Part shown: positions 19,332 through 58,916 of the stretch, piece by piece | How positions within the stretch are numbered: position 1 is the stretch's first letter | Layout: every line of letters starts with the position of its first letter | NCBI GenBank assembly: GCA_029821735.1 | Contig: JALGSU010000009.1 | Span: forward strand, 95,139-159,138 | Length of the DNA stretch: 64,000 nt | Direction of reading: 5' to 3' | Source of the DNA: Candidatus Zipacnadia bacterium | GTDB lineage: Bacteria; Armatimonadota; Zipacnadia; Zipacnadales; UBA5352 | The notes under the pieces: generated by a model | What the model saw: the letters and a program-made list of their open reading frames with translations, nothing else | Database searches by the model: none | What the model was told of the DNA's origin: nothing | Position numbers and translations under genes: made by a program

Positions 19332-20515
19332 CCGCGGCCGCGATAGTCTGGGCGCTGCTGCTGGCGCTCCCCTCCGCTGCACAGGAGTGGGCGCTTCAGG
19401 ACGCACAGGCGCGCGTGGAGCTGGCGATCGAGGGGGACATGTACACGCGTGACGAGATGCATCTCGAGACAGTCGTCGACTTCAATGAGCTACTGGAAGC
19501 ACGGACGTTGCGAGCGGACTCGCTCACCCTCGTGGACACTGGCAGCGGTGAGCGCATCGAATTGCAGACGGCCGAGGACGCACAGATGCGCTACGCCTCC
19601 GGGAGCCCGATCCTGCGACTGCGGTGGGCTTCGGGGGCGCTGGAGCGATTTGAGCGCCGAAGCTGGCACCTCTATATGGGTACCACCAAGCGCGGCTCCG
19701 AGGACGCCTGGGCGCACCTGGAGCAAACCTTCCTGCCGCGACCGCCGAGCCTGCTGTTCGAGTCGGACTTCGAGATCGCTGACCCGAATCACCCGTACCG
19801 GCCACTGGCTTTCAACCCCGGCGGCAGGGACGTCGATGGCGAGCACACCGACCGTGTGTGGACCGACCAGCAGGCACGCTCGGGCACGCACGCGCTGAAG
19901 ATCGAGCGCAGATCCGATGACGGTCCCCCCACGAACAGCAACCGGCCTTTCTGGTGGACCTGGCCGCCACCCATGGAAGTGAGTGAGGGCCAGAGCGTGC
20001 AGGTCGAGGCCTGGCTGAAGGCGGAACGGCTGGCGCAGGGGGCGATGGCGAGCGTGGCACTGGAGTTCCGGGACGCCGAGAACGCCAGGTTGGGCAACCG
20101 TCTGTGGCTGCGCGGCCCGCGCATCCCCCATGACTGGCAACTGATGGCGGGCACGGTCATGGCGCCAGCAAACGCCGCCAGCGCGGTCTTCTGGTTCTCG
20201 CTGCACGGTGACGGGGAAGCCTACTGCGACGACGTGCGGATCACCAGCAATTCGCGCGGGGGGAAGCCGGAGCTGAGAGTTACCCGTGGAAGGCTGGAGG
20301 ACGGGGCCAGCTTCACCGCCGACGACGCTGCGTCCATCCAGGAGAAGACACTCAAAGTGGGCATCGCCGGACAGCCGCCAGCGATCGACGGGGCACTCGA
20401 CGACGCCTGTTGGCAGACCGCCGGGGCCATCCGCGAGATGGAGGACTTCATGCGTGTACTTTGGCTTCGACTGCCAAGAACCAGCGACCGACAACCTGCT
20501 CGCGGGCGCCGCTGA
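19328..20515 (+). CDS. Exported CBM9-domain protein, 5' part of a frame-broken gene
   Basis: The gene starts at an ATG overlapping the previous stop. It encodes a signal peptide (MTAAAIVWALLLALPSAAQ), a beta-rich domain (~20-135) and a CBM4-like sandwich (~140-310; FESDFEIADPNHPY, YCDDVRITSN). The start of a CBM9 domain follows (AIDGALDDACWQTAG, ~354-368). Homology stops at about residue 375 (nt 20452); the frame then runs through unrelated codons to a stop at 20515. The rest of the CBM9 domain continues in the +1 frame from about 20454. Against the intact CBM9 domain of the DUF4838 protein at 46.8-49.4 kb, about 17 residues are missing at the break. Carbohydrate binding is the likely role. 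Confidence 0.7.
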   Translation: MTAAAIVWALLLALPSAAQEWALQDAQARVELAIEGDMYTRDEMHLETVVDFNELLEARTLRADSLTLVDTGSGERIELQTAEDAQMRYASGSPILRLRWASGALERFERRSWHLYMGTTKRGSEDAWAHLEQTFLPRPPSLLFESDFEIADPNHPYRPLAFNPGGRDVDGEHTDRVWTDQQARSGTHALKIERRSDDGPPTNSNRPFWWTWPPPMEVSEGQSVQVEAWLKAERLAQGAMASVALEFRDAENARLGNRLWLRGPRIPHDWQLMAGTVMAPANAASAVFWFSLHGDGEAYCDDVRITSNSRGGKPELRVTRGRLEDGASFTADDAASIQEKTLKVGIAGQPPAIDGALDDACWQTAGAIREMEDFMRVLWLRLPRTSDRQPARGRR

Positions 20516-21539
20516 GCGCGACGGGCCAGCCTGGCAGGATGACTCGGTCGAGCTGTTCCTGGACACGAACCTGGACCGCCACAGCTACTACCAGATCATC
20601 GTCAACCCCAATGGCTTCTTCTTCGATCAGGACACCGGTGCGCCGGATCTGGCCGGAGCCAAATGGGACGGGCCCATCAGTGTGGCCACGGAAATTCTGC
20701 CCGACCGCTGGACCGCCGAGGTGAAGCTGGAGTTCACCGGTCTGCGATTAGCTGAGGCCGGGCGCACCTGGGGCGCAAACTTCACGCGTACCAGCATGCG
20801 CGAAGGCCGCTCGTGCTACACCTGGATGAAGATGAAGGACAGTTTCGGCCAACCGGCCCTGTTCGGTGACCTGGTGCTGCCTTTCGACCCGAGCGCGAAT
20901 GTGGTCACCGGGCGGGCCACGTCTGGCCCGCAGCTGTTCTGGGGCGAGGGCGCGCTACCGTTCGAGATTACCAACAACCGCGACGCGCCCGTGGACGTGC
21001 GAGTAGCCGTTGCCGACGAGGACGCTGGAGCGATACTCGCCGAAGAGCAGTTCTCGATCCAGCCACGCAGTCATACTGAGGTCGGCCTCGGATGCGCCTT
21101 CGCCCAGCCCGGCGAAGTGAAGCTGCGCTACGATTTGTTCGAAGAACCGTCCGGCAAGTTGCTCTACACCACCTCGCAGGCACACACGGTGCCCGAGCCC
21201 ATGACGATCGAACCACGGAGCCTGATCCTGTACCTGAGCGAGGACCACGTCGCCGGAAGCTACACGCTGGGCATCTCTCCAGACGCGGTGGCGGCAGTGA
21301 CTTTGCGGCTGGCAGTGATTGCCGAGGGCGCGACAGACCCCGTTGTGACCGGAACCATCGGCCCAAAGAACACCACCGGTTCGTTCAGAATTGCGGTGAG
21401 TGAGTTGGGGGCCGGAAGCTACGAGCTGCGCGCGGAACTGTTGCGGGGCAAGCAGGTAGTGGCTTCGCAAAGTGTGAAAATCACGCGGCGAGCGGGGCCG
21501 TTCGACGGGGGCCTCCGGGGGCGCGGACCTGAACTCTGA
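20454..21539 (+). CDS. CBM9-domain protein, 3' part of the frame-broken gene
   Basis: From 20454 the frame reads VYFGFDCQEP, the C-terminal half of the CBM9 domain begun in the preceding fragment. It continues through WQDDSVELFLDTN and IIVNPNGFFFDQ, the usual CBM9 aromatic and acidic sites. About 220 further residues form beta-sandwich domains (LPFEITNNRDAPVDV, ELRAELLRGKQVV) before the stop at 21539. No start codon with a ribosome site lies near the break, so this half is not a gene of its own. Either the locus is a pseudogene or ~50-53 bases are missing from this sequence; frame arithmetic requires a loss of 3n+2. Confidence 0.7.
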   Translation: MYFGFDCQEPATDNLLAGAAERDGPAWQDDSVELFLDTNLDRHSYYQIIVNPNGFFFDQDTGAPDLAGAKWDGPISVATEILPDRWTAEVKLEFTGLRLAEAGRTWGANFTRTSMREGRSCYTWMKMKDSFGQPALFGDLVLPFDPSANVVTGRATSGPQLFWGEGALPFEITNNRDAPVDVRVAVADEDAGAILAEEQFSIQPRSHTEVGLGCAFAQPGEVKLRYDLFEEPSGKLLYTTSQAHTVPEPMTIEPRSLILYLSEDHVAGSYTLGISPDAVAAVTLRLAVIAEGATDPVVTGTIGPKNTTGSFRIAVSELGAGSYELRAELLRGKQVVASQSVKITRRAGPFDGGLRGRGPEL

Positions 21540-21628
21540 CCGAACCGACCGGGACTTGCCCGCAGTTTGCTCGCCGCTGATGTCGTGACGCTCAATCACA
21601 GCGCTCTTCTTCACGAGGGAATGACAAC

Positions 21629-22519
21629 ATGCCCGACACACACGACCTGGACGTTCTCCGCGAACTGGCAACACGAATGGCTGCAATCGCAGCGCTTCCT
21701 GTGCAGGAGGAGAAGCGGCAACTTTGGCGTGGCCTCAACGCGCTGGAGCCGGTGCGCCCCATGGTCATGATCGACCAGGTGTGCTGGAACGAGATGGATG
21801 TCAACGACGAGTTGACGCTGCACTGTAAGGACGCCGAGTGCCAGGGCTATGAGAACGTGATGCGCCGCACGCTATATCAGTGGGACCATTTCCGCGTGGA
21901 CATGGTTGTCGAACCGTTCGTGCGCGTGCCGAAGGCGGTCCGCAACACCGGCTTCGGGGTCGCTCGCGAAGAGGATGTCTCGGTGACCGACCCGACCAAC
22001 TCCGTCGTCGGGCACAGATACATCAACCAGTTTGAGACCGAGGCGGATCTGGAGAAGCTGCGGATGCCCGAGATCAGCCATGACCCGATCGAGACCGAGC
22101 GCCGCCTCGCTCTTGCCCACGAGGTCTTCGACGGGATCATCGAGGTACGCGCGTGGGGTGTGGACGCGGCCGCATCGTTGTGGGACCCGATCAGCACGTG
22201 GATGAGCGTAGAGGGAGCTCTGTGGACGCTGGCCGATCGCCCCGAGTACATGCACCGGCTGGTCGGGAAGATGACCGATGGCTACCTGGGCACACCGGCG
22301 CCTGGGTGGACGAACTGCCCGCGCCCGGCTACGATCCGGCCCGGCCGCGCCGCAAGGACATGTGGGCGATGGGGCTGGCGCAGATGTTCTCGACCGTGTC
22401 GCCGCAGATGTTCAGGGACTTTGAGGTGGACTACGTCGCGCGCATCTGCGAGCACTTCGGATTGGTCTACTACGGTTGCTGCGACCCCCTGGACCGCAAG
22501 ATGGCCGAGGTGCGGATGA
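21629..22519 (+). CDS. URO-D-like protein, paralogue 2, 5' part of a frame-broken gene
   Basis: This fragment carries the N-terminal ~220 residues of a URO-D superfamily protein (MPDTHDLDVLRELATRM..., RPMVMIDQVCWNEM, WGVDAAASLWDPIST, LWTLADRPEYMHRLVGKM). Coding similarity ends at GYLG (nt ~22290). The frame then gives proline/arginine-rich codons and stops at 22519, while the family sequence resumes one frame over at 22291. The ATG follows CACGAGGGAATGACAAC, where GAGGGA serves as ribosome site. Homologues of this subfamily usually have a segment of roughly 20-25 residues between GYLG and the HTGAW/HCTG-type motif, and this segment is absent here. It lies 89 bp after the CBM9 gene. Confidence 0.7.
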   Translation: MPDTHDLDVLRELATRMAAIAALPVQEEKRQLWRGLNALEPVRPMVMIDQVCWNEMDVNDELTLHCKDAECQGYENVMRRTLYQWDHFRVDMVVEPFVRVPKAVRNTGFGVAREEDVSVTDPTNSVVGHRYINQFETEADLEKLRMPEISHDPIETERRLALAHEVFDGIIEVRAWGVDAAASLWDPISTWMSVEGALWTLADRPEYMHRLVGKMTDGYLGTPAPGWTNCPRPATIRPGRAARTCGRWGWRRCSRPCRRRCSGTLRWTTSRASASTSDWSTTVAATPWTARWPRCG

Positions 22520-22806
22520 TCCCGAACGTGCGCAAGGTGTCGATGAGCGCGTGGACGGACCAGGAGTTGGGCGCGAGTGAGATCGACGGGGAGTACGTGT
22601 TCTCGCGCAAGCCCTCGCCCGCGCCGCTGGCAACCGATGTTTTTCACGGCGATGCGGTGCGCGAGGACCTGCAGGCCACCAAGGAGATCTGCGCCCGGCA
22701 CGGCTGCGCGCTGGAGATCATCCTCAAGGACATCAGCACCGTGCGCTACGACCCCGGACGCCTCAGCCAGTGGGCTGCGATCGCCATGGAGGTCGCCGAT
22801 GCATAG
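22291..22806 (+). CDS. URO-D-like protein, paralogue 2, 3' part of the frame-broken gene
   Basis: This is the C-terminal half of the URO-D-like protein, beginning HTGAWVDELPAPGYD. It has the highly conserved subfamily blocks FSTVSPQMFRDFEVDY, GLVYYGCCDPLDRK, NVRKVSMSAW and EIILKDISTVRYDP. The GCCDPLD cysteine pair lies where corrinoid methyltransferase members hold their zinc. These blocks are intact, so the break at ~22291 is recent or artefactual rather than the result of long decay. The missing sequence must be 3n+1 bases. There is no plausible independent start. The gene converges on the HExxH protein gene, which ends 36 bp away on the other strand. Confidence 0.72.
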   Translation, partial: HTGAWVDELPAPGYDPARPRRKDMWAMGLAQMFSTVSPQMFRDFEVDYVARICEHFGLVYYGCCDPLDRKMAEVRMIPNVRKVSMSAWTDQELGASEIDGEYVFSRKPSPAPLATDVFHGDAVREDLQATKEICARHGCALEIILKDISTVRYDPGRLSQWAAIAMEVADA

Positions 22807-22841
22807 CAGCGTAATGCACTGCGTTGGCTCGCCAGCACGAC

Positions 22842-25800
22842 TCACCAGCGGGTGGTGCGGACCTCCCTGCAGGCCAGTCCATCTCCTGACAGACACGCGA
22901 AGGTCAGGTGCCCGCCCCGCAAGTAGGCCGCTTCATCACGGGCCTCCAGCACATCACGGTCGTCAACGCTGATACTGAACTGCCCGCGCTTGAGGTCCAC
23001 CTGTATCTGGTGCCACTGCCCAGCCGCCAAGCTGACCTTTGCGGCACCCAGCGTCGTCTTGAGCCCGCCCTCAGCCCGCCGGACGACAATGCGGTTACCC
23101 GTCAGGCGGACAATATACGCAGTCAAGCCGCGCCCTTCGTCATTGAGGCAGAAGCCAATCTCGCCGGTTGAGTCAGTGTGCCTGTATTCGAAGCTGAGCT
23201 TGAGACTATGGTGCTCTTCGTTTTCGCTCATGGCCCGTCCGGGCCCGGCAAAGGCGAGCACAGTGCCGGTGCCATCCTGAGCGACGTCCGCTCCACCAGT
23301 GAGCAGCCACCCGGCAGCAGACCTTACCTGCCCGTCGTCTTCGGCAGGTTCTCCCGGCGGGTCGCGCGGGTCACGAACCGTGGGAGTGGTCGGTTCCTCG
23401 GCACCTGGGGCGGTCAATGCAAAGTCGATGGTCTCCCGCTCCTGGCCGAGAATGCTCTGGTAGTCCCCCATCGTGGTCGCCAGCGCCTGTAGGCGCGTCT
23501 TGGCGTCTCTCATGATCTCTCTTATGGACCTTCTCTGCAGGGGGCGCAATTCCTCGACGTCCCCGAGGCCCTGCATCGCGTTGCTGAGGAAGCCTACCAG
23601 CTGGGTTCGCTGCCCCTCGATCTCAGGCAGACGCGCCTCACGGTCCACGACTTCCTGCCTCAGCTCACGCAAATACTCCATCTGCTCGGCTGTCAGTACC
23701 GGTATCCTCAGCTTCCCGGTTGACGCGTTGTTCAGGAATGTCGTCTGCTGCGGAGCCTGCAGCACACCGTTGGCCATCATCAGCGAGGGCATGGCTATGG
23801 TTGTCCGCAGACCCGTGTCGCCGCCACCCGCCTCGGCCTGCGGTCGCCGGTCCGGATCGAGCCTGGCCTCGAGCTCATCGGCGATTGCCAGGGCCTGGCC
23901 CTGAATCCGCGTGTATTCTTCCGCCAGCGATGAACTCCTGGACAGCGCCGCGGACAGACTCAGCGTCTCGAGCGCGGGGATTGGCGGCGTGGTTGTCAGG
24001 TCGACTCCGGCGTATGGGCCCCCCCGGGTCGGCTGGCCCTGCCCGCCCCGAAGTGTTTCAGAAATCATGCCTCTCTCCGGTAGCGTCCGCGGCTGCGCCG
24101 GCATGTAGGGCCGGAGGCGATAGACGACCTCGAACGTCGTGTGCAACTGCACGGGATTGTCAAGCGTGTCCTTGACGGTGACGGTCTCGTCGAGCACGAT
24201 CTCTACCCTCTGGGGCGCGAAGCCGTAGGCCTCGTCCCGTGTCCAGCGGATGGGTGCCGGCTGTGAATTGAGGTCAACACGGCCGCCGCCCCCTACCTCG
24301 AGCATCTGCCGACCGCCGACGTGGAAGCGCAGTTCGATATAGTCGGGCAGTCTTGGCAGCTTGTAGATCTCGGTGGCTTCCGCGAACTTGTACGTGTTCG
24401 CTCTGGTCCGCCAGGTGGTGTCGGCCATCTGAGTTGGTCGGGGAGCGGTGTTGGTGCCGTCCGTGACGGTGACGTTGCAGAAGATCTGGTTCAGCTCGGG
24501 CATGCCGGTGAACCAGTAGCTGCTGTCCAGCGGGGGATCGGCCTCACGGTAGACGTTGACCTCAAGCAGTTCGGCGATCACCCCTCCCATCTGCGCCTCG
24601 GGCGGCGGCTCTGGCGCGTCCTCAGCCACATCAGACATCATGTTGTCATCTGACTCGATCAGAAATCTCGGGTTCGGGAGGCCGGGAGCCCAGGCGACGT
24701 CTTGGCCGACGGTAATCGTCTTCCTGTGGTTTTCCCAACCGCCCTCCCCGAGCGTCACCCTCTGCACCAGGCGCTCGTTCAGGAAGATGTTCGCCCGGAC
24801 GTGCGGCTTGTCTTCTTCGTCCTGCTCAAGGACAGTGATAGGGATCTGGGCCTGCCACCCATCCCAGGTGATATCACCAAGTTCAACAAGCGCGGGGCCT
24901 TCGTGCAGTCGGAGATCACTCATTCCCTGGTTGTACAGGATGGATTTGAGCGCATGGCGCATATCCATGTCCGCACGGTCGAGCCAGACCCTTACGAAGG
25001 AACTGTGATCGTGCGAGAACGCGTATGGGCGCTCGTCGGTGAATACATCCCATATCTTCGCGAGATCCGGGTCGGAGATGCCGTCCCAGAACAGCTCATC
25101 ACCGGGGATATCAGTACGCTGTATGCACCGCTTCTCCCATCCCTCACCGTCGTGGATGTCCCACAGGACGTTAGCGATGTATCCCTCGATCAGATCGTTG
25201 ACGCTGGCGGTGCTGCCGCCGGGCATTTCCACCTCGGGCGAGACCTCGCAGTTCATGTAGGGAACCGATGCGGTGGGGTCGAGCATCTTGCGGTTCTTGT
25301 AGCGAGGGGTCAGCGATGCGTGCGCCAGGAAGTCTGCCCAGGCCTCCACCCATGCGCCCTCGTAGTGGTCGCAGGGCTGCCAGTAACTGTGGTCACCGGC
25401 GGAGTCGGGCATGAGCCAGTATTCGTCGGCCATGACGCCGTGGCTGAGCTCGTGGCGGAAGGTGTGAGACGCGCTCAGGAGCTTGTCCAGTGCGCCCTGC
25501 GTGGTGTAGTGTTCCGGGAACACTCGATCGGGGATCTTGATGTAGTCGAGGACGCGCTCGCGCACCGGGTCCTCAGAGTGGGGGAAGCTGACTTCCTTCT
25601 CCTCGAAGTTGCCCGCACCGAGCGCGCCATCCAGAAGGAACAGGCGATGATCGGTCATCTCGTGGTAGATGAAGAAGGCCCGCCACCCTCTCCGGGAGTA
25701 GGTGGGCGAGGAGTTGTCGAGATCGGCCAAACCGCCTAGCTGCCATTCGTCTACATCGTCCTCGGTGCCGCCGAGGGTCAGGTCGATGTCAGTGAACTCG

Positions 25801-26186: not shown

Positions 26187-26492
26187 GGTCATCGCCTCCA
26201 TGCGGCGGGGCAGTTCCCGACCTTACAGTGGCAGGAAGCCGGCATCGTCGCCGATGAACACGGTGTTCGCCGGGATCTCCCCTATCGCGCCGAATACCCC
26301 TGTCTCCGGCCAAGCCATCGCCTCGTCTGTAGAAGACTTCGACGCTGGGGACGCTGGCGCCTGCTTGATACATAACGAATCGATGCAACAGAGCCCTGCA
26401 AAGCGGGGCAGGCTTAAACCGCCTGAGTGTCGAACGAGACAGCGGAAGATCGCGCGGTTAAGCGCAAGGCAAGGCCGACGAGGTGCCATGTC
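26187..26492. other. Divergent intergenic region with a weak ORF remnant
   Basis: This 306-bp stretch separates the divergent HExxH and GH20/84-like genes and should hold both promoters. A minus-strand frame at 26223-26489 ends with ETGVFGAIGEIPANTVFIGDD, which reads like the end of a real protein but has no ribosome site and no recognisable family. It may be a gene remnant or chance. No clear -35/-10 pair or inverted repeat was found. Confidence 0.35.
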
Positions 26493-27350
26493 ATGAACGC
26501 CGCAAGGATAGCTGCTGCCCTGATGGGGATGCTCCTGGCCGCCAGTTCCGCCACGGCGGACCCGTACGACGTTGCCGACCGCTTGGATATCATTCCCACG
26601 CCGCGAGCGATCACACTCGATGGTGAGCGGCTGGACCTTGCCGGGTGGGTGATCGTGCCGGCCGCAGACTGCCCCATGTCGGCGATCGGGGCCGAAGAGA
26701 TCAATGACCGGATCAACTCACTCGGTGGTCAGACGCTGACAGTGGCCCCCGAGCCCGGGGGATCTGGCGCTATCTTTGTGGGGGCTGTGACCGATCCACT
26801 GACCGAGCAGGTGGCCACCTCACTGGGCACCGTTCTCTCTGAGACGGACCCGGGCGAACAGGGCTACGTCATCGCGTTCGGTGAGCGCGAGGGGCTGCCG
26901 GTCATCCTGTGCGGGGGATCAGATCCGCAGGGGGCACTGTACGCGTGCGTGACTCTGCGCCAGATGATCCAGAGCGAGGACGAGCGCACGGTGGCGCTGT
27001 CGGGCATGGTGCGCGACTGGCCCGACTTCAAGTACCGCTGCAACTGGCTCATGAACGTGCGCGGCATCCCCCCCGCCACGAACTCGCCGGACAGGTTGGC
27101 AGCCGCCGTTGCCGACGCCAAGGCAGAGATCGACTTCTGCGTGCGCCACAAAATCAACCACGCCATCGGTCGCTTCCGCGATCTCTCCGCGCGAGAGGAA
27201 GCCCGCGACGTCCAGATCGAGGTGCTGCGCTATGCGGCCGAGCGGGGCATCGGCGTGCGCTATGGCGGTTGCCCTCATGCGTGGCGAGAAGCACGCCTTC
27301 ATCTGGTCGGCGCTGGACGCCCATGCCGAGCATGCGCAAGACGTGGCTGA
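26493..27350 (+). CDS. Exported GH20/GH84-like glycosidase, 5' part of a frame-broken gene
   Basis: The ATG follows GAGGTG with an 8-base spacer and begins a signal peptide ending near SSATA. Residues ~25-165 are the GH20b-type alpha/beta domain (DIIPTPRAITLDGER, AEEINDRINSLGG, LPVILCGGSDPQGALYA), which precedes beta-N-acetylglucosaminidase and alpha-glucuronidase barrels. The first TIM-barrel strands follow (VRDWPDFKYRCNW, FCVRHKINHAIGRF). Homology stops at GIGVRYG (nt ~27266), after which the frame yields unrelated codons to the stop at 27350. The barrel resumes one frame over. Exact family membership is unsure because the catalytic strand may lie in or near the lost segment. Confidence 0.7.
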   Translation: MNAARIAAALMGMLLAASSATADPYDVADRLDIIPTPRAITLDGERLDLAGWVIVPAADCPMSAIGAEEINDRINSLGGQTLTVAPEPGGSGAIFVGAVTDPLTEQVATSLGTVLSETDPGEQGYVIAFGEREGLPVILCGGSDPQGALYACVTLRQMIQSEDERTVALSGMVRDWPDFKYRCNWLMNVRGIPPATNSPDRLAAAVADAKAEIDFCVRHKINHAIGRFRDLSAREEARDVQIEVLRYAAERGIGVRYGGCPHAWREARLHLVGAGRPCRACARRG

Positions 27351-28656
27351 CCGACTTGCACAGGTGAGTGCTGGCATGGTCGCGCTGCACCCCTTCGATG
27401 GCGGGGCCTACATTGACCCCGAGCGCTGGAGCGCTCGCGCACCGCAGGACGTCGAACGCTATGGCGGCGACCGGGCCGCAGCCAGCATCGAGCAGTTCAA
27501 GCTCTACTTCGACGCCTACCGCCAGGCGGTGCCCGGTATCATGGCCGAGGCCGTCAGCTACCCTTACCACTACCAGTTTGCTCTGCCAGACTTCGACACG
27601 TACTATCAAGACATGACAGTGCCTCCATACTGGAACTGGTGGCGAGCAATAAAGAGCCCCGAACAGGCGCGCGAGGTGGCGCAAGGCCTCGTTGACTACC
27701 ACAGGCGTCTCTCTGAAGCTCTCGACCCGAACGTCTTCATCACCTTCCGCGAGGCCGAGCGCCGTGTCTTCCTCGCCTGCGCTCAACTCTACGAAGGCCA
27801 CCCCATCACGATCTGGACGTACCCCGAGACCTACAAGGGCTGGCAGGGACTGTTCCTGCCCCAGAGCCGCTTTGCGGCCTCGTTCTTCCGGACCGAGCAG
27901 AGCGACTACTGGTTCCAGGCCGGCGGGTTCATTGCCGGACGCGACGACCGGGTTCAGTATCTCGCTCAGCAGGAGTATCTATGGAACGTCCAGCGCCCGG
28001 ACGCCTCCGAGGACTTCACGGTGCGTTCACGCCTGTATTCCGAGGAGGGCACGCCCAGCGACTACCAGCGGGAGAGACTCATCCCGCGTATCTGCCGCAT
28101 CCTGTACGGTCCCTCGGCAGAGGTGATTGAGCCCCTGATCGCAGCGAACGCGAGCTTCAACTACGTGGCTCGCCCGGTCGCTGTGGCGAACGAGTCCAGT
28201 GGGGAAGCCTTCGATGATCCCTTCGTGCACCTGGCCGAGCAGGGGGAACTCATGGCCCGCTGTCACGCTGAACTCGCCGACCTGATCGGCGCAGCGGAGG
28301 CAGGACCGCCTCAGGATGGGCAGGAGCAGTTCCACGAGCAGCCCAATCGACAGGGGGCGCTCTACTACTACAAGTACACGGGTATATGCGCCGAGAGGGC
28401 GGCACTTCAGATCAGCATGAACGCCGTTCGCGCACTCGTGGCTGAAGGCCAAACGGACGAGGCGCGCGCTGCTGCTGACCGCATCAAGGCCGAACTTCCG
28501 GCAATCGCGGCGCGAGTGGCGGCCATCCACGAGCGCGTTGATGGGCAACCCTCAATGCGGACGCCGGCCGGCGACGCTGAGAAGGCGCTGCACGCGTTCG
28601 ACCCGAGCGCTTACGCCGCTCAATTCGACCGCGTCCTGGCCGCGAGCGGACAATGA
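27268..28656 (+). CDS. GH20/GH84-like glycosidase, 3' part of the frame-broken gene
   Basis: This fragment continues the TIM barrel of the preceding one, resuming at ALMRGEKHAFIWSALD. Long conserved stretches follow (PGIMAEAVSYPYHYQF, VPPYWNWWRAIKSPEQA, FITFREAERRVFLAC, TIWTYPETYKGWQG) and a C-terminal helical region (~350-460) with few low-complexity stretches. No start codon with a ribosome site is present at the break. A loss of 3n+2 bases joins the two frames. Acidic catalytic residues cannot be assigned with confidence. If repaired, the protein would be about 720 residues or more, with a probable exo-glycosidase role in the periplasm or outside the cell. Confidence 0.68.
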   Translation, partial: VALMRGEKHAFIWSALDAHAEHAQDVADRLAQVSAGMVALHPFDGGAYIDPERWSARAPQDVERYGGDRAAASIEQFKLYFDAYRQAVPGIMAEAVSYPYHYQFALPDFDTYYQDMTVPPYWNWWRAIKSPEQAREVAQGLVDYHRRLSEALDPNVFITFREAERRVFLACAQLYEGHPITIWTYPETYKGWQGLFLPQSRFAASFFRTEQSDYWFQAGGFIAGRDDRVQYLAQQEYLWNVQRPDASEDFTVRSRLYSEEGTPSDYQRERLIPRICRILYGPSAEVIEPLIAANASFNYVARPVAVANESSGEAFDDPFVHLAEQGELMARCHAELADLIGAAEAGPPQDGQEQFHEQPNRQGALYYYKYTGICAERAALQISMNAVRALVAEGQTDEARAAADRIKAELPAIAARVAAIHERVDGQPSMRTPAGDAEKALHAFDPSAYAAQFDRVLAASGQ

Positions 28657-28735
28657 TCGTGCTGAACTACGTGCTACCTTCGCTATCGACCTGCCGACGA
28701 CGGGGGCAGGACCAGATGACAGAGGGTGACGAACA

Positions 28736-31945: not shown

Positions 31946-32013
31946 CTGCGCCGTCATGCGCCGCGACAAGCTCCATCTGAAATAAGTTATCTCACGTATG
32001 GTTGGTGACTGAG

Positions 32014-32736
32014 ATGCGTCGTCTACTGCTGTGCATCTGCGCAACGCTCACGCTGTCGGTGGCTTTCTCACAGGAGATCAAGTCCGGTGGCCTGCTTGCC
32101 GCCGACGGCTTCGACCGCTTCACCGACGCCACAACCGATCTCGGTAGGGTCGATACTGGCGACGCTGTGTGGGCCAGGAACGACGTCGGCAAGGACGGTG
32201 CTGCAGTCCCCAGCCTCATTATCGGCATCAACGGCGAACTGCAGATCCGCTACAGCTCCGGCAACAACAACGCCCCGGCCGTCTATCTGCAGGACTTCAC
32301 CATCGACAATGCGGTCGTCTTCGTCACGGTGGGCAGGTCGCTGATGGGCGGGCGAACCAACACCGCCGTCATCACGTACCGGGCGCAGGAGCCGAAAGAC
32401 GTTTGGTCCCACAGCGCGGAGGCCTACCACGTGGAGCTTGCCGCCGACTGGTCGACCAGCCGCGATGTGATCCTGCGGTACGGCAGCGAGGTCCTGGCCG
32501 TCGGTGACGTTGCTGACGAGCGCGCAGCCGATGGCGTCCATAGAGTCAGAGTCGCATACGCAGGCTTCCACCACCAGGTATCGGTCGATGACAAGCCAGT
32601 CATCGACTTCTGGGAATATGAGAGCGGCCGAAACAGCGATCACCAATGTCGCGGATCAGTCCACGGTCTCGGCATCGGGTCAGATGGCGCCGCTGATCTA
32701 TCAGGGACGGCCGATCTTCGTCCTCGGCAGCTTTGA
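32014..32736 (+). CDS. Exported LamG-like/TIM-barrel protein, 5' part of a frame-broken gene
   Basis: The chosen ATG begins MRRLLLCICATLTLSVAFSQ, a signal peptide; the ribosome site is weak (GGTGACTGAG). Residues ~25-205 form a LamG-like sandwich (ADGFDRFTD, VHRVRVAYAGFHHQVSVDD, IDFWEYESG). Similarity stops at nt ~32622 and the frame runs on to a spurious stop at 32736. Compared with the C-terminal LamG-like domain of the HExxH protein, the last beta-strands of the sandwich, about 20-25 residues, are missing. The downstream frame then enters the second domain directly. Confidence 0.68.
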   Translation: MRRLLLCICATLTLSVAFSQEIKSGGLLAADGFDRFTDATTDLGRVDTGDAVWARNDVGKDGAAVPSLIIGINGELQIRYSSGNNNAPAVYLQDFTIDNAVVFVTVGRSLMGGRTNTAVITYRAQEPKDVWSHSAEAYHVELAADWSTSRDVILRYGSEVLAVGDVADERAADGVHRVRVAYAGFHHQVSVDDKPVIDFWEYESGRNSDHQCRGSVHGLGIGSDGAADLSGTADLRPRQL

Positions 32737-33928
32737 CATGCCGCGCGATGAGGACCTCGCGGAGTGGAAGGAGGCGGGTGGTAACGCCGCAATCGTGGGC
32801 ACATTCAGCGAATCGCAAGCTCCTGACGAGCGCAAGCAGAAGCTCGAAGCGCTTGCCCAGTGGGGCGCGGACAATGATGTCGCAATGGTCTACTACCCGC
32901 TCATCTACCTCTTCTCCAAGGATGGCGAGAAGACGATCCCTACCCTTGAGGAGGAGATTCCCGGGAAGGTGGCGCTGCTGGAGGAGATGCTGGCCATCAC
33001 CGCAGACCACCCGAACACACTCGGTTACTGGACCTTCGACGAGATAGAGAACCACTTGTACAAGTCCTATGCTGACTGGAATGAGAAGAAGGACCGAGGG
33101 CTGGCGGAGTGGATTGCCGACACGATGAAGTGGACCTATGACACCGTCAAGCAGGGCGACCCGGACGCCTATGTAATGCCCACCATTGCCTGGTGGACGA
33201 CCTACGAGGGTCTGGCGCCACTGTATGATGTGAACGTGCCGAATACCTACGGCTGCGGCAAGGATTCCCCGCACCTCGGCGGCGACATGTACAACATCAT
33301 CTACGACGCCGTCAAGGCCGCTGATGCCATCCGCGCAAGCGGGCGGACCTCGTATGTCTTCATGCCACGCTCGTATGACGTCCTCGAAGGCTCGCGGCCA
33401 GCATCGCTGTTGGAGCAACGCTACTGCTTCTTCGCGCCTATCACCCAGGGCGCCATGGGGCTCCTGCCCTGGCGGCTGGGGCGCTGCACCATGCCCTACC
33501 GACGCGCGGTAATCTACCCGGCGATGCGAGAAGTCAAGCGCCTCATCCCGTGGCTACTGGGCGAGTGGCATGATGAGAAGGTCACCTCAAACCATGACAC
33601 CGCCACCGCCGACTACCTGAAGGAATTCCCCGAGCGAGCGAAGATCATTCCGGGTGAAGAGGACGCGGCGATGGTGGAGACCGAGGTGGACGCAGTGCCC
33701 GATTGCTCCTACTGCCTGCGGCGGCGGCCGGACAACAGCTACCTGCTACTCGCCTGCAGCAATCGTGCGGAGCCGCTGGATGTCACGTTCACGATCAGCG
33801 ACATCCCGGGCCTGCCCGAATCTGCACGCGACATGATCAACTGGCACGATGTGCCGATAGTGCATGGCACGATCACCGAGACGCTCCAGCCGTTCGCGGT
33901 AAGAGCGTACGTGTTCGCAGTGGAGTGA
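32624..33928 (+). CDS. TIM-barrel glycosidase-like protein, 3' part of the frame-broken gene
   Basis: This fragment is ~434 codons and opens AAETAITNVADQ. It includes QGRPIFVLGSFDMPRDED, typical of strand 1 in GH2/GH5-like barrels annotated as glycoside-hydrolase-like, then HPNTLGYWTFDEIENH, where the Glu of the DE pair occupies the acid/base position. It continues with YVMPTIAWWTTYEGLA and a C-terminal beta-sandwich ending AVRAYVFAVE. It lacks its own start and is best read as the second half of one exported protein of ~650 residues. The lost segment must be 3n+2 bases. Its stop lies 22 bp from the end of the convergent isomerase-like gene. Confidence 0.7.
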   Translation, partial: AAETAITNVADQSTVSASGQMAPLIYQGRPIFVLGSFDMPRDEDLAEWKEAGGNAAIVGTFSESQAPDERKQKLEALAQWGADNDVAMVYYPLIYLFSKDGEKTIPTLEEEIPGKVALLEEMLAITADHPNTLGYWTFDEIENHLYKSYADWNEKKDRGLAEWIADTMKWTYDTVKQGDPDAYVMPTIAWWTTYEGLAPLYDVNVPNTYGCGKDSPHLGGDMYNIIYDAVKAADAIRASGRTSYVFMPRSYDVLEGSRPASLLEQRYCFFAPITQGAMGLLPWRLGRCTMPYRRAVIYPAMREVKRLIPWLLGEWHDEKVTSNHDTATADYLKEFPERAKIIPGEEDAAMVETEVDAVPDCSYCLRRRPDNSYLLLACSNRAEPLDVTFTISDIPGLPESARDMINWHDVPIVHGTITETLQPFAVRAYVFAVE

Positions 33929-52227: not shown

Positions 52228-52447
52228 GGAGGGCGATGTTACCGCGGGACGAAGTTCCCTCGCAGCAGGCGATGCTGGCTCACGCGCCGAACCAGGCGGG
52301 ACGGCGAGGGCTATAGCCACGTGGGGACGCACTATGTCGGGGAGCTTGGCGGGGCCGGTCTTCGCCCTTCCCTTCACTATCTGAGAATGGAGACCCGGAC
52401 CATCCATCTCCATTCCTGCAATCCAAGCATGGTGGTGACGAAGCGAA

Positions 52448-52843: not shown

Positions 52844-52909
52844 CGCGAACTGCATTCTCATCTGACCGCAGACCAGCCGCAGGCGCGCCCGCTTTGGGCT
52901 TCGGGCCAC

Positions 52910-54361
52910 TCATTCCGCGAAGCCGGTTTCAGGGCGTGGCGGCCAGTGCCGTGAGCCCTGCTGCAGAGGCAGTGTGTCACTGCTCTCAAGCACCCAATTG
53001 AGCAGCCGGTCGCGGAGTTGGGTGCGCACCTCGCCGTAATCCTCATGCGAAGCCACATTCACGACAGCATCCGGGTCGCGACGTAAGTCGAACAGCTCGT
53101 CCACGTCGTTTGTGCAGTATATGTACTGGAAATCGCGGGTGCGGATCATGGCGCAGCGGCTGAGGGAGACGTCAGGGTTCTGGTTGACGATATCCCTGCG
53201 CTTGGCGTACCAGTTTTCCGGTGAAAGGCCCTCAATTCCCCAATGGTGTTCCCCCGCCAGTCTACCGCCTTCGGCGAACACGGCATCTCGATACACATCC
53301 CCATCACCGGTGATCGCAGGAACGAGGCTTTGCCCCAGTTGGTGGTGCTTTGGCTGCAAGCCGACGAGTTCCATCAGCGTGGCGTAGAGGTCGTTCATCT
53401 CGCACAAACCATCTACCTCGCCTGACGCCGTTCCGGGCACCCGGAAGATCAGCGGAACGCGAAGCAGACAGTCCTCGAAGCCGTAGGGGCATTTCTCTAC
53501 CATGCCGTAGTCACCCGCGTAATCACCGTGATCCGAGAACGCAACCACGATCGTGTCTTCCTCCAGCCTGCGTTCGGCAAGCTTGTCCAGGATCCGTCCG
53601 AGCTGCGCGTCGACGCGACTGACCATGCCGAAATAGACGGCTTTGATCTCGCGGCAGTCAGCTTCATCAACCCCATTCGGGAACGCGAAATCCCGATACA
53701 GCTTGCGGTAGGCCCGCTTGCTCTCCCCCTCAACGGGGGGAATTGCGGTCGGAAGCGCGTCGCGGTCATGCATGGAGAAGTACGGCTCCTCGGCCACGTA
53801 CCAAGGGTGGGCGAAGCTCAGCGGCAGGAGCAGACACCAGGGCTGGTCGTGGTCCTCGTCCAGGAACTGCAGAGCGCTCTCGGTATGGGCCCAATCTCCA
53901 TCGTGGCACTCGCCCTCGCGGAGCCCGTGATACATCGCGGGCGTCAGCCGCTCTGATGTCGGCGATGGCACAACACGTGTGGTCTCCCGATCAGGCTGCA
54001 GCCGCGCACCCCACTCGTCGAAGCACTCCGCGGCGAAGTCAGGAGCGATCAGGTCGTTCTTACCGAACACGACGTTCCGATAGCCTGCCTCCTTGAGATC
54101 CTGGAACAGGTTGCGCTCATCTTCCTGCAGCAGGTGCCATATCGACCGATGCCCATGAGTGTGCGGGTAGAGCCCCGTGAACATTGAGCACCGACTTGGG
54201 GTGCAATAGGCCATCTGCGCGTAGGCATACGTGAAGGTGACTCCTTCGGCACGGAGTCGGTCGAAGTTTGGGGTCACCGCCCGCGTCTCAGGCGGTCCGT
54301 AGATGGCGTCGCCACGCACGGTTTCGGGCAGAAAGAGAAGAATATTCGGTCGCTTGCTCAT
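52910..54361 (-). CDS. Sulfatase (CxPSR type)
   Basis: This 483-residue sulfatase has the formylglycine signature CTPSR with Cys53 (AYCTPSRCSMFTG), followed by GLYPHTHGHRS. C-terminal metal and substrate residues are in VAFSDHGDYAGDYGM (~290-304). The usual N-terminal Asp-Asp pair is replaced by LPETVRGDAIYG (Glu13, Asp18), the alternative form seen in a subset of sulfatases and phosphatase-like relatives. No signal peptide is visible, which is unusual for a glycan sulfatase; it may act in the cytoplasm or leave by another route. Activity needs a formylglycine-generating enzyme, not encoded here. AGGGAG precedes the ATG. Confidence 0.9.
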   Translation of the reverse strand: MSKRPNILLFLPETVRGDAIYGPPETRAVTPNFDRLRAEGVTFTYAYAQMAYCTPSRCSMFTGLYPHTHGHRSIWHLLQEDERNLFQDLKEAGYRNVVFGKNDLIAPDFAAECFDEWGARLQPDRETTRVVPSPTSERLTPAMYHGLREGECHDGDWAHTESALQFLDEDHDQPWCLLLPLSFAHPWYVAEEPYFSMHDRDALPTAIPPVEGESKRAYRKLYRDFAFPNGVDEADCREIKAVYFGMVSRVDAQLGRILDKLAERRLEEDTIVVAFSDHGDYAGDYGMVEKCPYGFEDCLLRVPLIFRVPGTASGEVDGLCEMNDLYATLMELVGLQPKHHQLGQSLVPAITGDGDVYRDAVFAEGGRLAGEHHWGIEGLSPENWYAKRRDIVNQNPDVSLSRCAMIRTRDFQYIYCTNDVDELFDLRRDPDAVVNVASHEDYGEVRTQLRDRLLNWVLESSDTLPLQQGSRHWPPRPETGFAE

Positions 54362-54612
54362 GGTTGCTCCCTGTGTTCTGACTGGCCCATCAGAGATGTT
54401 GTCCTCCCCTGGAGGCGGCCCAAGTGCCATGTTAATGCTGTCGGCGCCCGGACGCAATAGGGGGCAGTGAAATGGGCGGCAGAATTGCGCACACCCGACA
54501 GTGGAGGAGGCCGTGGTGATCGCGGCGCGCAGAGGTGGGGAGCGCCTGATTGCCGAATGAGAGAGCCGCCACACCCAGGACCAGAGATGAGACATGCTTG
54601 GAGCGAAGACGC

Positions 54613-56586
54613 ATGAAGATGATACACCCGCTTGTCCTCGCCATACCTCTGTGCGCGGTCTATTCCGTCGGTGGCTCTGCCGACGCAGCAGAACTGGTGC
54701 TCGTGCAGGACGGGGCCCCGATGGCTGTGATCGGGATCCATGCGGAAGCGAGCATCATCGAGCGCGAGGCCGCTGATGACCTCCAGACGCACCTGCGCAT
54801 GGCATCCGGCGCCGACGTCGACATCATCGAGACAACGGACGTGGGGACGCTGCCCGCCGACAAGGTACACCTGATCGTAGGTGCACAGCTTGCCCGTGAC
54901 CTCGGCGTGGACACAGAGGACCTTGAGCCGGAGGAGTACGTCGTGAGGACCGTCGGCAACCGCATCGTCTTCGCGGGCCATGATCTCGGTGAAGGCGGGG
55001 GCGATGCCAGCTCAACCGTTCGTGAGTCGGCAGCCACCGTCTGGGCGGTCGGCTGGTTCCTCGACCACCAGATGGGAGTGCGCTGGCTCTGGCCAGGTGA
55101 GACGGGCACTTACGTTCCCGCACGGGACACGATCGTAGCACCCGAACTGGATGTGCGAGAGAAGCCTTTCCTGGAGCAGCGCAAGCTGCGGGTCCAGGTC
55201 CATGCCAGCCCGAGCACTGAGGGGGCTCGTCTGCTCACCGACGCCCAGCGTTTGCAGCTAGTGGATGAGACCACGCAGTGGAAGCACCGCCACCAGATGG
55301 GGCGTCGCTCTACCTTCAAGTTCGGGCATGCTTTCGGGCCTTGGTGGGAGAAGTACAATGCGGAGTTCCCGGACTACTTCGCGACAGCCCCCGAGGGTCG
55401 CACGGTCAAGAAGACGAACCGGGCCAAGCTGTGTGTCTCCAACCCGGCTGTTGCTGAGCGGATCATGGAGGAATGGCGGGCTGCTGGCTCGCCAGACAAC
55501 TGGAACGTCTGCCCCAACGACGGTTCTGGCTTCTGCACCTGCGACGACTGCCGCGCGATGGACATCCCCGCTGACCAGGCCCCAGAGGACGTCTGGTCTG
55601 GTAAGGCCAATCTGACCGCCCGCTATGTCAAGTTCTGGAACGGCCTGATCACCGCGATGCGGGAGGAGAACCCGAACGCGACGATCTCCAGCTACGCCTA
55701 CAGCTGCTACCGGGAGCCGCCGGAGGGCCTAGCGCTCAACCCGGGCATCGTCCTGGGGATGGTGCATACCTACCACTCCTTCGACGAGTGGAAGGCGTGG
55801 AGCGACGCCGGTGCGCAGCTCTTCCTGCGCCCCAACTGGTGGCACATGGGCGGCCCGGCCCCGCACATTCCACTGCATAGCCAGGGCGAGTACTTCCTCT
55901 TTGCGCGCGAGCACTCGATGATCGGCTACGACTTCGACTCCCTGATCGGCTCCTGGGGAACCCAGGGGCCACTCTACTACCTCATCACGAGGCTCAGCAG
56001 CCGCAGTGACTTGACAGTGGACGATGTGATCGAGGAATACTGCTCAGCATTTGGCGCAGCGACGCCGATGCTGCGCGAGTACATAGCGTTCTGGGACGAG
56101 TTCGCCGACCGCGCGACGTATGCGGTACCCGCAGGCGGCGCGGTCTCCGTGGATCCGAACGGGCTCTACGAGCAGACGGCGAGGAAGTACGAGATGAACA
56201 TACACCCGATCGCCAGCAGTTGGCCGATCCTGCCGGCGCTCTACACCGACGAACTGCTTGAAGAAGCCGAGGCGATCCTGACGCGCGCGGAGACCGCAGC
56301 GACCGGAGATACGCCGGAGGTCCAGGCGCGCGTGAAGTTCGTTCGCGACGGCCTGCAGCACATGCGGCTGACGCGCGATGCTATTGCGCTCTTCGATCGC
56401 CGCTTCCGCCCCGAGGGAGCCACGGAGAACGGCTTCGCTGAGGCCGCGGCGCGGTTGCAGGACTTCCGCAGAGAGATCACGCCGCGCCACGTGGTCTGGG
56501 GCGAGACGATCAACAACTACGAGATCAGGCACAGGTACGCAACCGGGCTCGTGGAGGCTGGCTGGATCGAGACGGAGGGGTTGTAG
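54613..56586 (+). CDS. Exported DUF4838 protein without a binding module
   Basis: This 657-residue protein has a signal peptide (MIHPLVLAIPLCAVYSV) and GGAG upstream of an ATG-AAG-ATG double start. The N-terminal domain (~25-150; VHLIVGAQLARDLG, RIVFAGHDLG) leads to DUF4838, with NVCPNDGSGF before Cys308, Cys310 and Cys313 (CTCDDCRAMD). The helical C-terminus ends near the last stop without any CBM, making this the shortest of the four DUF4838 proteins. It is divergent from the sulfatase; the 250-bp gap should hold both promoters. Confidence 0.85.
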   Translation: MKMIHPLVLAIPLCAVYSVGGSADAAELVLVQDGAPMAVIGIHAEASIIEREAADDLQTHLRMASGADVDIIETTDVGTLPADKVHLIVGAQLARDLGVDTEDLEPEEYVVRTVGNRIVFAGHDLGEGGGDASSTVRESAATVWAVGWFLDHQMGVRWLWPGETGTYVPARDTIVAPELDVREKPFLEQRKLRVQVHASPSTEGARLLTDAQRLQLVDETTQWKHRHQMGRRSTFKFGHAFGPWWEKYNAEFPDYFATAPEGRTVKKTNRAKLCVSNPAVAERIMEEWRAAGSPDNWNVCPNDGSGFCTCDDCRAMDIPADQAPEDVWSGKANLTARYVKFWNGLITAMREENPNATISSYAYSCYREPPEGLALNPGIVLGMVHTYHSFDEWKAWSDAGAQLFLRPNWWHMGGPAPHIPLHSQGEYFLFAREHSMIGYDFDSLIGSWGTQGPLYYLITRLSSRSDLTVDDVIEEYCSAFGAATPMLREYIAFWDEFADRATYAVPAGGAVSVDPNGLYEQTARKYEMNIHPIASSWPILPALYTDELLEEAEAILTRAETAATGDTPEVQARVKFVRDGLQHMRLTRDAIALFDRRFRPEGATENGFAEAAARLQDFRREITPRHVVWGETINNYEIRHRYATGLVEAGWIETEGL

Positions 56587-56696
56587 CGGCAACGGCGGGG
56601 GGCACACCAACGACCGGCCCATCGGTGCGCCGATCGGGACACGGTCGTCACCATCGAGCGGGTGTGCGCGCGCCTCTTCGCCGAGTCAGAATCGTA

Positions 56697-56809
56697 GCAG
56701 GAAGGAGTGCCCTTCAAGGCTAATTCTCCCAATGGCATCACCCAAACGGGTGGCGGGGAGGCCGACGGTTGCTTGTGCAGGACAGCCGACCAGAGGAGGC
56801 GTTCCTGGG
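56697..56809 (+). promoter_or_regulatory. Conserved leader of Kre9-repeat surface protein gene, copy 2
   Basis: This leader aligns gap-free with 34947-35059: GCAGGAA, then TCAAGGCTAA at 56714, CACCC-AAAC-GGGTG (a five-base-pair stem), GACAGCCGACC and GAGGAGGCG. Both run 96 nt from TCAAGG to the start codon. The role is unknown; it is an RNA element candidate or duplicated flank. Confidence 0.4.
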
Positions 56810-58612
56810 ATGACGACAGCACGGTCTGCCGCAGCATCTTGCGCGATGGTGTTGGTCGCACTTGCGTTGGCCGCAGGTTTCGCGTGCGGCGATGAGACCC
56901 GCGCGATCTTCGGAACGGTCACCGACCAGGATGGTGCGCCAGTTCCTGGTGTGGCCCTGAGTTTCCACGAAGTGCTCCCCTCACAGACCACTGACCACGA
57001 CGGAGATTACCAGGTATCAGGTGCCGAGTCAGGCGAAAGCTACACGGTCGTGCCCATCAAGGCCGGCTTGGTCTTCTCACCTGCCAACCGGACGGTTACC
57101 GTCGGCTCTGGCGACGAGATGGCTAACTTCACGGCACTGGCGACGGGCAGAGCGAAACTGGCGAGCACCGGGCAGGGGGGCGACACCGGCAAGGCCGGGA
57201 TTTACTTCCCCACTGTTCTGTACCCCAACGGCGGAGAGACTTGGGAACAGGGGAAAGCCTACAACATCCGCTGGACATACGAAGGCTCAGGGCCGATGAT
57301 GATCAGCCTGAACCATGATGGGGTGTTGGTGGCAAGTATCACGAGCGGCACACCAAACGATGGCTCATTCTGGTGGAAAGTACCACCCAGTGTTCCCGCC
57401 GGCACCAAGTACGACGTGAAGATACGGGGAGCCGACAGCCCCAGCAGCGACTACTCGGATGGTCTCTTCACCATCGCAGAGACGCCGCTCGTCACCTACC
57501 CGAGTGCCGGCGGCGTAAGTTGGCGACGCGGGCAGTCATACAAGATCCAGTGGCAGGGGTTTGGCGGAAGTCACGTGAAGATCCAGCTCTACCGGGCGGG
57601 ATCGCTGAACCGGTTGATTTCGTGGTCAACGCCAAACGATGGAGCGTTCTGGTGGAATGTGCCGGCCACCCAGGCGACGGGCACAACCTTCAAGATCAAG
57701 ATCACCGGACAGAGCAAAGCGGTGGTGTATGACTTCTCGGACAAGAACTTCATCATCGCAGGCGAGCAGACGGTGACGTGGCCGACTGCTTCGGGAACAT
57801 ACTGGTTCCAGGGAACCACGAACGCCATCCAATGGACGGGCTACGTGGGCCCGAGCGTGCGGATCGAGTTGCTGAAGAACTGGTCCCTGGTGAAGGTCAT
57901 CAGCGCGGCTACCCCCAACGACGGGAGCTTCGTATGGAAGATGCCGTGGACCATGCCGGGGGGACCGGACTACCGCATTCGCGTAATCTCGGCCAATGAC
58001 CCGACTCAGAAGGACCACTCAAACAACAACTTCACAGTGGTGCCGGTGCCGCATGTTATCTACCCGAGCGCTGCGGGTGTGTGGTGGGTCAAGGACCAGG
58101 CATACGCGATCAAGTGGTCAGGGTACACATGTGCCACTGTGAATATCAGCCTCTACAAGGGTGGCACCTGGCACAGAACCATAGCGGCCAGTACAGCGAA
58201 CGATGGGAAGTTTGTCTGGAAGGTCCCTGCGGGAGAGACATCGGGGCATGACTACACGGTCGTGGTCAGAGAGGGCTGCGCGAAGCCGTCCGTCGAAGAT
58301 TCCTCTAACAACCCGTTTACCATCGCAGGCCCCCCGAAGGTCACGTTCCCGAATGAAGAGACATACATGATCGAGGGGCAGAACTACCAGATAAAGTGGA
58401 CCAACTTCCGCGGGACTACCGTCAAGATCGAGCTGCTGGACTTCGGGGTGCCCGTGGAGGTCCTGTCGCCTGGCACAGCCAACGATGGCATGTTTGTGTG
58501 GCAAGCGCAGGACGCGAAGGTCATCACGGAATCCTACACGATACGCATCACCTCCGTTCAGTACCCGTCATTCACGGATACGTCCAATGAGCACTTCGAG
58601 ATCGGTAGTTGA
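56810..58612 (+). CDS. Exported surface protein: carboxypeptidase-regulatory domain plus five Kre9/KNH-like repeats
   Basis: This 600-residue paralogue of the 35.1-kb protein has its ATG 12 bases after GAGGAGG and a signal peptide MTTARSAAASCAMVLVALAL. Residues ~29-105 are the carboxypeptidase-regulatory sandwich. Five Kre9/KNH-type repeats then begin near 130, 220, 315, 410 and 505, with motifs YPNGGETWEQGKAYNIRW, GQSYKIQWQGFGG and TPNDGSFVWKMPW. Repeats 2-4 match repeats 2-4 of the first paralogue closely; repeat 5 is extra. It is likely extracellular and adhesive or structural. The next paralogue starts 55 bp downstream. Confidence 0.83.
   Translation: MTTARSAAASCAMVLVALALAAGFACGDETRAIFGTVTDQDGAPVPGVALSFHEVLPSQTTDHDGDYQVSGAESGESYTVVPIKAGLVFSPANRTVTVGSGDEMANFTALATGRAKLASTGQGGDTGKAGIYFPTVLYPNGGETWEQGKAYNIRWTYEGSGPMMISLNHDGVLVASITSGTPNDGSFWWKVPPSVPAGTKYDVKIRGADSPSSDYSDGLFTIAETPLVTYPSAGGVSWRRGQSYKIQWQGFGGSHVKIQLYRAGSLNRLISWSTPNDGAFWWNVPATQATGTTFKIKITGQSKAVVYDFSDKNFIIAGEQTVTWPTASGTYWFQGTTNAIQWTGYVGPSVRIELLKNWSLVKVISAATPNDGSFVWKMPWTMPGGPDYRIRVISANDPTQKDHSNNNFTVVPVPHVIYPSAAGVWWVKDQAYAIKWSGYTCATVNISLYKGGTWHRTIAASTANDGKFVWKVPAGETSGHDYTVVVREGCAKPSVEDSSNNPFTIAGPPKVTFPNEETYMIEGQNYQIKWTNFRGTTVKIELLDFGVPVEVLSPGTANDGMFVWQAQDAKVITESYTIRITSVQYPSFTDTSNEHFEIGS
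57512..57625 (+). repeat. Near-identical 38-codon block in Kre9 repeats, copy 2
   Basis: This is the same block as 35759-35872 and 59351-59464. Differences are mostly synonymous, and the encoded SHVKIQLYRAGSLNRLISW is identical in all three copies. Confidence 0.85.
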
Positions 58613-58667
58613 CCGCGACCGCTGAACGAACAGGTGCTATGAGATTCGCGTGTGAGAGGCGAGGTCC

Positions 58668-58916
58668 ATGGTGAACCGCGACTTCCTGCCAAAGCACATA
58701 GCGTTGTGGGCGGCGATCAGTCTCTGCGGGCTTGTGGCGACATCCTGCCTCGCGGCTGAGACCCACTCGATCTTCGGGACGGTGACTGACGCTGAGGGCC
58801 AGCCGATTGCCGGAGTGTGCGTGGACTTCGGCGGACAGATGGGGCTGGGAAGTACAAGGCAACTGGCGCAGCCGAAGGTGAGAGCTACACAATCGTGCCT
58901 GTCAAAGCCGGCATGA
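58668..58916 (+). CDS. Kre9-repeat surface protein 3, 5' part of a frame-broken gene
   Basis: This begins MVNRDFLPKHIALWAAISLC, a signal peptide, with GGCGAGGTCC before the ATG. It then encodes the start of the carboxypeptidase-regulatory domain (SIFGTVTDAEGQPIAGVCVDF). After nt 58829 the frame leaves the family sequence and stops at 58916. In both paralogues eight residues (HEVLPSQT in the 56.8-kb copy) separate the Phe from the following Thr-Asp; here only five bases remain, so a net 19 bases are missing. Its leader does not resemble those of the other two copies. Confidence 0.7.
   Translation: MVNRDFLPKHIALWAAISLCGLVATSCLAAETHSIFGTVTDAEGQPIAGVCVDFGGQMGLGSTRQLAQPKVRATQSCLSKPA

What the first reader, a model, noticed from the sequence alone, without database searches (positions are those of the whole stretch)
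20452..58834. Five genes broken the same way: a short internal segment is missing and the frame shifts
In five genes (breaks near 20453, 22290, 27267, 32623, 58832) the family sequence stops mid-domain and resumes in another frame a few bases later, with residues missing rather than a single-base slip. Losses range from 19 bases (measured against paralogues) to roughly 50-75. Flanking coding sequence is otherwise pristine. Losses divisible by three would leave no frame trace, so more may be hidden. Explanations are a systematic assembly error (for example collapse or bubble-popping at short repeats or hairpins), strain mixture, or a deletion-prone process acting on exported glycan genes. Four breaks fall between 20 and 33 kb.
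Basis: partly seen in the sequence, partly recalled or inferred. Interest (0 to 1): 0.8.

Follow-up and report, generated by a model that had tools for sequence, protein, structure and literature searches.

The report
Genome-wide missing snippets, likely assembly errors
Five genes in this draft genome of an uncultured bacterium each lack 19 to 65 letters that their relatives keep, and the same kind of gap turns up across the sampled parts of the genome, even in core genes, so the gaps are likely mistakes made when the genome was assembled rather than biology.

Summary
In detail: the five breaks are losses of 56, 58, 44, 65 and 19 nt against relatives or paralogues. A deletion process aimed at exported glycan genes does not hold. 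A frame census of 1.64 Mb of the same assembly (28.7%) gave 54 candidate breaks, 3.3 per 100 kb (48, or 3.0, without the window), against 4 in 391 kb of four related genomes, 1.0 per 100 kb. Ten further frame-breaking losses outside the window measured about 14-98 nt, in an AMP-binding enzyme, a transporter, an amidohydrolase, a sulfatase and lepA among others. gatB, with one match in the genome, lost 33 nt in frame: 11 residues that 11 of 11 relatives keep. Most junctions have little or no shared sequence, lost stretches are not hairpin-rich, and no Ku gene was found. A living cell with so many fresh losses, core genes included, is very unlikely. The likely cause is drop-out of short stretches while contigs or consensus were built; the exact step cannot be named without reads. 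Verdict: not a real biological feature.

The parts
19328..21539 (+). Gene 1, protein with a CBM9-like domain, split in two frames; junction about 20453/20454; 56 nt missing
   Evidence: L010 has 57 nt where the window has 1 nt, and L012 gives the same 56-nt difference; alignments (L011 differs by 59); CBM9_1 in the second piece
21629..22806 (+). Gene 2, conserved protein without a Pfam or NCBIfam match to its pieces (recalled label: uroporphyrinogen-decarboxylase-like), split; junction about 22292/22293; 58 nt missing
   Evidence: 58 nt in 6 of 6 relatives (L025-L030), which are 78-83% identical downstream and open through the site; no family match
26427..28656 (+). Gene 3, protein with a Glyco_hydro_20b domain, split; junction between about 27261 and 27271; 44 nt missing
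   Evidence: against L035 only; Glyco_hydro_20b in the first piece
32002..33928 (+). Gene 4, protein without a Pfam match to its pieces, split; junction about 32639-32643; 65 nt missing
   Evidence: against L043 (83-84% identity downstream of the break); more distant L044 nets 68
58668..59902 (+). Gene 5, Kre9/KNH-domain protein, split; junction about 58829-58834; 19 nt missing
   Evidence: 19 nt against 3 of 3 paralogues in the same genome; Kre9_KNH in the second piece
1738..2985 (-). Upstream partner of a possible further break at about 1806 (minus strand): the coding signal leaves this frame 69 nt before its stop, and the next gene lacks the initiator that relatives have
   Evidence: (relatives L229, L230, L231 and own-genome paralogue L233 start the downstream gene with MRL; the window reads RSYL with no Met)

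Best explanation
Five genes here lack 19-65 bases that their relatives or paralogues keep, and because the same gene-blind losses recur across the sampled assembly, in gatB and lepA too, they are likely drop-outs made while the contigs were built and not mutations of the organism. The likely step (untested) is consensus building or contig joining in which short stretches of tens of bases were skipped. That could be noisy long-read consensus whose small errors were later polished away while drop-outs too long to polish stayed, or contigs abutted across small unfilled gaps. Shown: the losses, their sizes, their spread over 15 of 22 sampled contigs and their indifference to gene function. Inferred: that the living genome is intact, and the software step.
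For: Five losses of 56, 58, 44, 65, 19 nt. Ten further frame-breaking losses outside the window: 26, 43, 67, 32, 34, 38, 98, 67 and about 14 and lepA 28 (7 of 9 relatives; the other two net 34). gatB lost 33 nt in frame, 11 residues present in 11 of 11 relatives, in a gene with one match in the genome; names lepA and gatB from NCBIfam (pieces, so below the whole-protein cut-offs). 54 census breaks in 1,643,614 bp against 4 in 390,691 bp of four relatives (3.3 vs 1.0 per 100 kb, one-sided P = 0.008; without the window 48 in 1,579,614 bp, P = 0.015). Contigs do not differ significantly (P = 0.17). Junction: 0-1 alternative placements in 19 of 28 loss-relative comparisons, 2-4 in 8, 7 in 1. No hairpin excess. 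No Ku gene. The bin has 86 contigs, 86.4% completeness, 5.1% contamination.
Against: No reads, coverage or assembly record were available, so the artefact is inferred. The census includes gene-boundary false positives: by a simple rule 5 of 54 own breaks look like that (one of the five is gene 4, a measured loss) and 2 of the 4 control breaks; one search shows the four. Control stretches and many own stretches were chosen near earlier hits, not at random. One break outside the window (L060) looks by eye like a one-base loss, and one 43-nt perfect tandem duplication breaks a frame in L121, so the errors are not purely deletions of tens of bases. Sizes 32, 34, 38, 44, 65 and about 14 rest on one relative each. 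Only 12 of 44 candidates could be sized.
Confidence: 0.87

Rival explanations
1. Chimeric molecules made before assembly: whole-genome amplification or library PCR skipped short stretches, and the assembler kept the skipped form where coverage was low.
For: Would also give gene-blind losses of tens of bases at many sites with intact flanks.
Against: Amplification skips usually join at short shared sequences (recalled); here 19 of 28 comparisons leave at most one alternative placement of the junction. An 86-contig 5.7-Mb bin suggests fair coverage (inference).
Confidence: 0.06
2. Strain mixture: some strains carry real deletions and the consensus took the short allele at many places.
For: The bin is a multi-contig draft with 5.1% estimated contamination.
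Against: It would need strains that lack 11 GatB residues kept by 11 of 11 relatives and carry a broken lepA; no second intact copy of gene 2 was seen in the bin (next best own match 45%).
Confidence: 0.03
3. Real, recent deletions in the organism, from a deletion-prone process or loss of repair.
For: The sequence as held shows the short form; relatives are open through the sites.
Against: Dozens of fresh losses in the sample with no further decay seen in the measured genes, core genes included, no Ku gene found, no restriction to exported or glycan genes.
Confidence: 0.04

Closest known systems
Indel errors in long-read and hybrid metagenome assemblies that split genes (PMC8575027, passages seen; it cites Watson et al.)
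   Same: Artificial frame breaks that turn one coding sequence into two fragments
   Different: Here the measured errors are losses of about 14-98 nt; one candidate looks like a single base
Local misassembly as scored by assembly evaluators (recalled term)
   Same: Short pieces missing or doubled at a join
   Different: The candidate rate here is about three times that of stretches of four related assemblies under the same test
Pseudogenes formed by deletion between short repeats (recalled)
   Same: Internal segment lost, frame shifted
   Different: Little or no shared sequence at most junctions, no further decay seen in the measured genes, and core genes hit

Membership tests
Assembly or consensus drop-out | Losses blind to gene function | tested here: met
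   gatB, lepA (names), AMP-binding enzyme, EamA transporter, amidohydrolase, Peptidase_S9-like hydrolase and sulfatase hit
Assembly or consensus drop-out | Spread over the assembly, not local | tested here: met
   54 candidates on 15 of 22 sampled contigs, heterogeneity P = 0.17; 28.7% of the assembly sampled
Assembly or consensus drop-out | In-frame losses occur too, as no selection acts | tested here: met
   gatB 33 nt. In 51 own ORFs with a relative, in-frame gaps of 12 nt or more: 5 own-missing (one is a frame-broken tail, gatB is another) against 1 relative-missing; small numbers
Assembly or consensus drop-out | Reads restore the missing bases | not testable with these tools
   No reads available
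Real deletion between short direct repeats | Direct repeat at the junction | tested here: not met
   At most one alternative junction placement in 19 of 28 comparisons, 2-4 in 8, 7 in 1; tied placements span up to 9 nt in gene 3. The lost letters are inferred from relatives, so short homology cannot be fully excluded
Hairpin-driven loss | Lost stretch folds more strongly than its neighbours | tested here: not met
   12 losses, mean z +0.39, standard error 0.17, judged on relatives' sequence
End-joining deletion (Ku pathway) | Ku gene present | tested here: not met
   0 matches to PF02735 in an assembly of 86% estimated completeness
Deletion process aimed at exported glycan genes | Restricted to such genes | tested here: not met
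   Translation genes, a CoA-ligase-type gene and a transporter hit

The most novel reading that the evidence does not exclude
An uncultured Armatimonadota lineage underwent a recent burst of hundreds of near-blunt 20-100 nt deletions in all classes of genes, core ones included, by an unknown Ku-independent process, and tolerates or bypasses them.
Probability: 0.03. Interest if true: 0.85.

Novelty: not a real feature. Interest (0 to 1): 0.15.

Why it matters
If the artefact reading is right, gene-loss, pseudogene or split-gene claims from this bin are unsafe. About 130 frame-breaking losses above the control rate are extrapolated for the 5.73-Mb assembly, and perhaps half as many in-frame ones if frame is ignored (inference). 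In-frame losses such as the one in gatB leave an open reading frame and would pass ordinary gene calling. A frame census plus relatives, with a core gene as control, can tell drop-outs from biology in draft genomes without reads.

Tried and rejected
Glycan-gene-specific deletion: rejected, core genes are hit. Hairpin loss: not supported. Repeat-mediated slippage: not supported. Ku end joining: no gene found. Local hot spot in the window: weak. Stripped runs of N: no N in 1.24 Mb of this genome, but none in the control stretches either, so uninformative. Duplications: near-adjacent exact repeats of 18 nt or more gave 19 entries in 1.24 Mb of this genome against 10 in 0.39 Mb of controls (arrays included), so no excess. 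Finding the genome's own record and assembler: the answer says that records of the own genome may be left out, and none was recognised, so the assembler stays unknown; a paper on the class Zipacnadia uses Illumina and IDBA-UD (PMC10290634, passages seen) but nothing ties it to this bin. Paper searches for such drop-outs in metagenome assemblies (listings only, empty) showed no title that I could match to this pattern; passages of PMC8575027 were seen. A small local homologue search and Pfam boundaries were too coarse for exact sizes; for the Gfo/Idh gene in L069 they suggest about 47 nt, which I do not count among the ten. Candidates 12 and 16 had only weak homologues whose alignment showed no frame event and were not counted. 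The in-frame gaps in L099 (12 nt), L116 (18 nt) and L069 (66 nt) were not counted as losses, since natural length variation was not ruled out.

Full report
What was checked. The window is G000:C85:95139-159138, the end of a contig in an 86-contig, 5.73-Mb bin (86.4% complete, 5.1% contaminated). The two closest named relatives found with gene 4 are titled Armatimonadetes bacterium and Candidatus Zipacnadia bacterium; the third, at 35% identity, is a Lentisphaerae bacterium. It is thus most likely an uncultured Armatimonadota.

The five breaks. I aligned each broken gene with relatives that are open through the site. Gene 1 lacks 56 nt against L010 and L012 (59 against L011). Gene 2 lacks 58 nt against 6 of 6 relatives shown. 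Gene 3 lacks 44 nt against one relative. Gene 4 lacks 65 nt against its close relative. Gene 5 lacks 19 nt against 3 of 3 paralogues. The coding pieces on either side are open frames.

Is it local? A coding-frame model found 19 candidate breaks in the first 443,614 bp of this genome against 4 in 390,691 bp of G019, G005, G022 and G012, on the one condition that the old frame runs on 30 nt or more. With a minimum piece length of 150 nt added there were 44 in 1,243,614 bp and 54 in 1,643,614 bp, against 4 in the controls: 3.3 against 1.0 per 100 kb, one-sided P = 0.008. Without the window it is 48 in 1,579,614 bp, 3.0 per 100 kb, P = 0.015. Counts over 22 contigs do not differ significantly (P = 0.17). 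The model misses some true breaks: gene 5 and lepA are not in its list. It also includes some gene boundaries: a simple rule marks 5 of 54, one of them gene 4 itself, and 2 of the 4 controls.

Are the others the same kind? Of the 44 candidates, 14 found a homologue on both sides in the local set. Twelve of the 14 were informative and all 12 are segment losses of about 14 nt or more, 4 in the window and 8 outside. The sizes outside are 26, 43, 67, 32, 34 (with a further 38 in the same gene), 98, 67 and about 14. The three in L114 rest on one homologue and the last on a distant one. lepA lacks 28 nt against 7 of 9 relatives and nets 34 against the other two. A Gfo/Idh gene in L069 lacks about 47 nt by Pfam positions, not counted here. 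One further break (L060) looks by eye like a one-base loss.

The core-gene test. In gatB (NCBIfam name) the loss is 33 nt, in frame, and removes 11 residues that 11 of 11 relatives carry just before a conserved LEEDTGKN stretch; the genome has a single match to the gene. GatB is needed for glutaminyl-tRNA formation in bacteria that lack GlnRS (recalled; GlnRS was not sought here). In 51 own ORFs with a relative at 55% identity or more, 5 in-frame gaps of 12 nt or more are missing in this genome and 1 in the relatives; one of the 5 is a frame-broken tail. lepA is also named by NCBIfam; the next best own match to its piece is 38% identical.

Mechanism. With relatives as guide, the junction has at most one alternative placement in 19 of 28 loss-relative comparisons, 2-4 in 8 and 7 in 1. 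A join through a shared k-mer or long repeat is not what is seen. The lost stretches fold no better than their surroundings. No Ku gene was found. I saw one frame-breaking perfect tandem duplication (43 nt, L121) and one of 36 nt nearby, but no general excess of near-adjacent repeats over the controls. A process blind to gene and essentiality, with near-blunt joins and clean flanks, fits drop-out of short stretches during consensus building or contig joining. I favour a noisy consensus later polished at single bases, or small gaps closed by abutting, but this step is inferred.

Limits. No reads or assembly record were available. Some sizes rest on one relative. Control stretches, and part of the own stretches, were taken near earlier search hits. 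The extrapolated total (about 130 frame-breaking losses above the control rate) is an estimate.

Noticed in passing
window 1738-2985 and 2-1891, minus strand, junction about 1806: Possible sixth break in the window at a gene boundary: the coding signal leaves the upstream frame 69 nt before its stop, and the downstream gene lacks the initiator Met that three relatives and a paralogue have.
   Followed up: partly
L188 (G000:C68:25001-45000), about 18095, minus strand: gatB lacks 33 nt in frame; 11 of 11 relatives carry the 11 residues.
   Followed up: yes
L191 (G000:C25:42001-62000), about 10721: lepA is split by a 28-nt loss (7 of 9 relatives).
   Followed up: yes
L121 (G000:C3:50001-70000), 8974-9059 and 7760-7832: A perfect 43-nt tandem duplication breaks a long gene's frame, and a 36-nt perfect tandem duplication lies 1.2 kb before it.
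   Followed up: partly
L114 (G000:C50:30001-50000), about 12287-12790, minus strand: Three losses of 32, 34 and 38 nt within about 500 nt of one gene, measured against one homologue, L091.
   Followed up: partly
L060 (G000:C27:40001-60000), about 1510, minus strand: A gene that looks like a formylglycine-generating enzyme (recalled label) with what looks like a one-base loss, unlike the sized breaks.
   Followed up: partly
L096 (G000:C27:80001-100000), 14059-14270: A frame break inside an array of 15-nt repeats, where two copies lie 20 nt apart.
   Followed up: no
G000:C19:939-15725: A run of paralogues of gene 5's neighbour and of gene 5 (Kre9/KNH type), at least one of them frame-broken.
   Followed up: no
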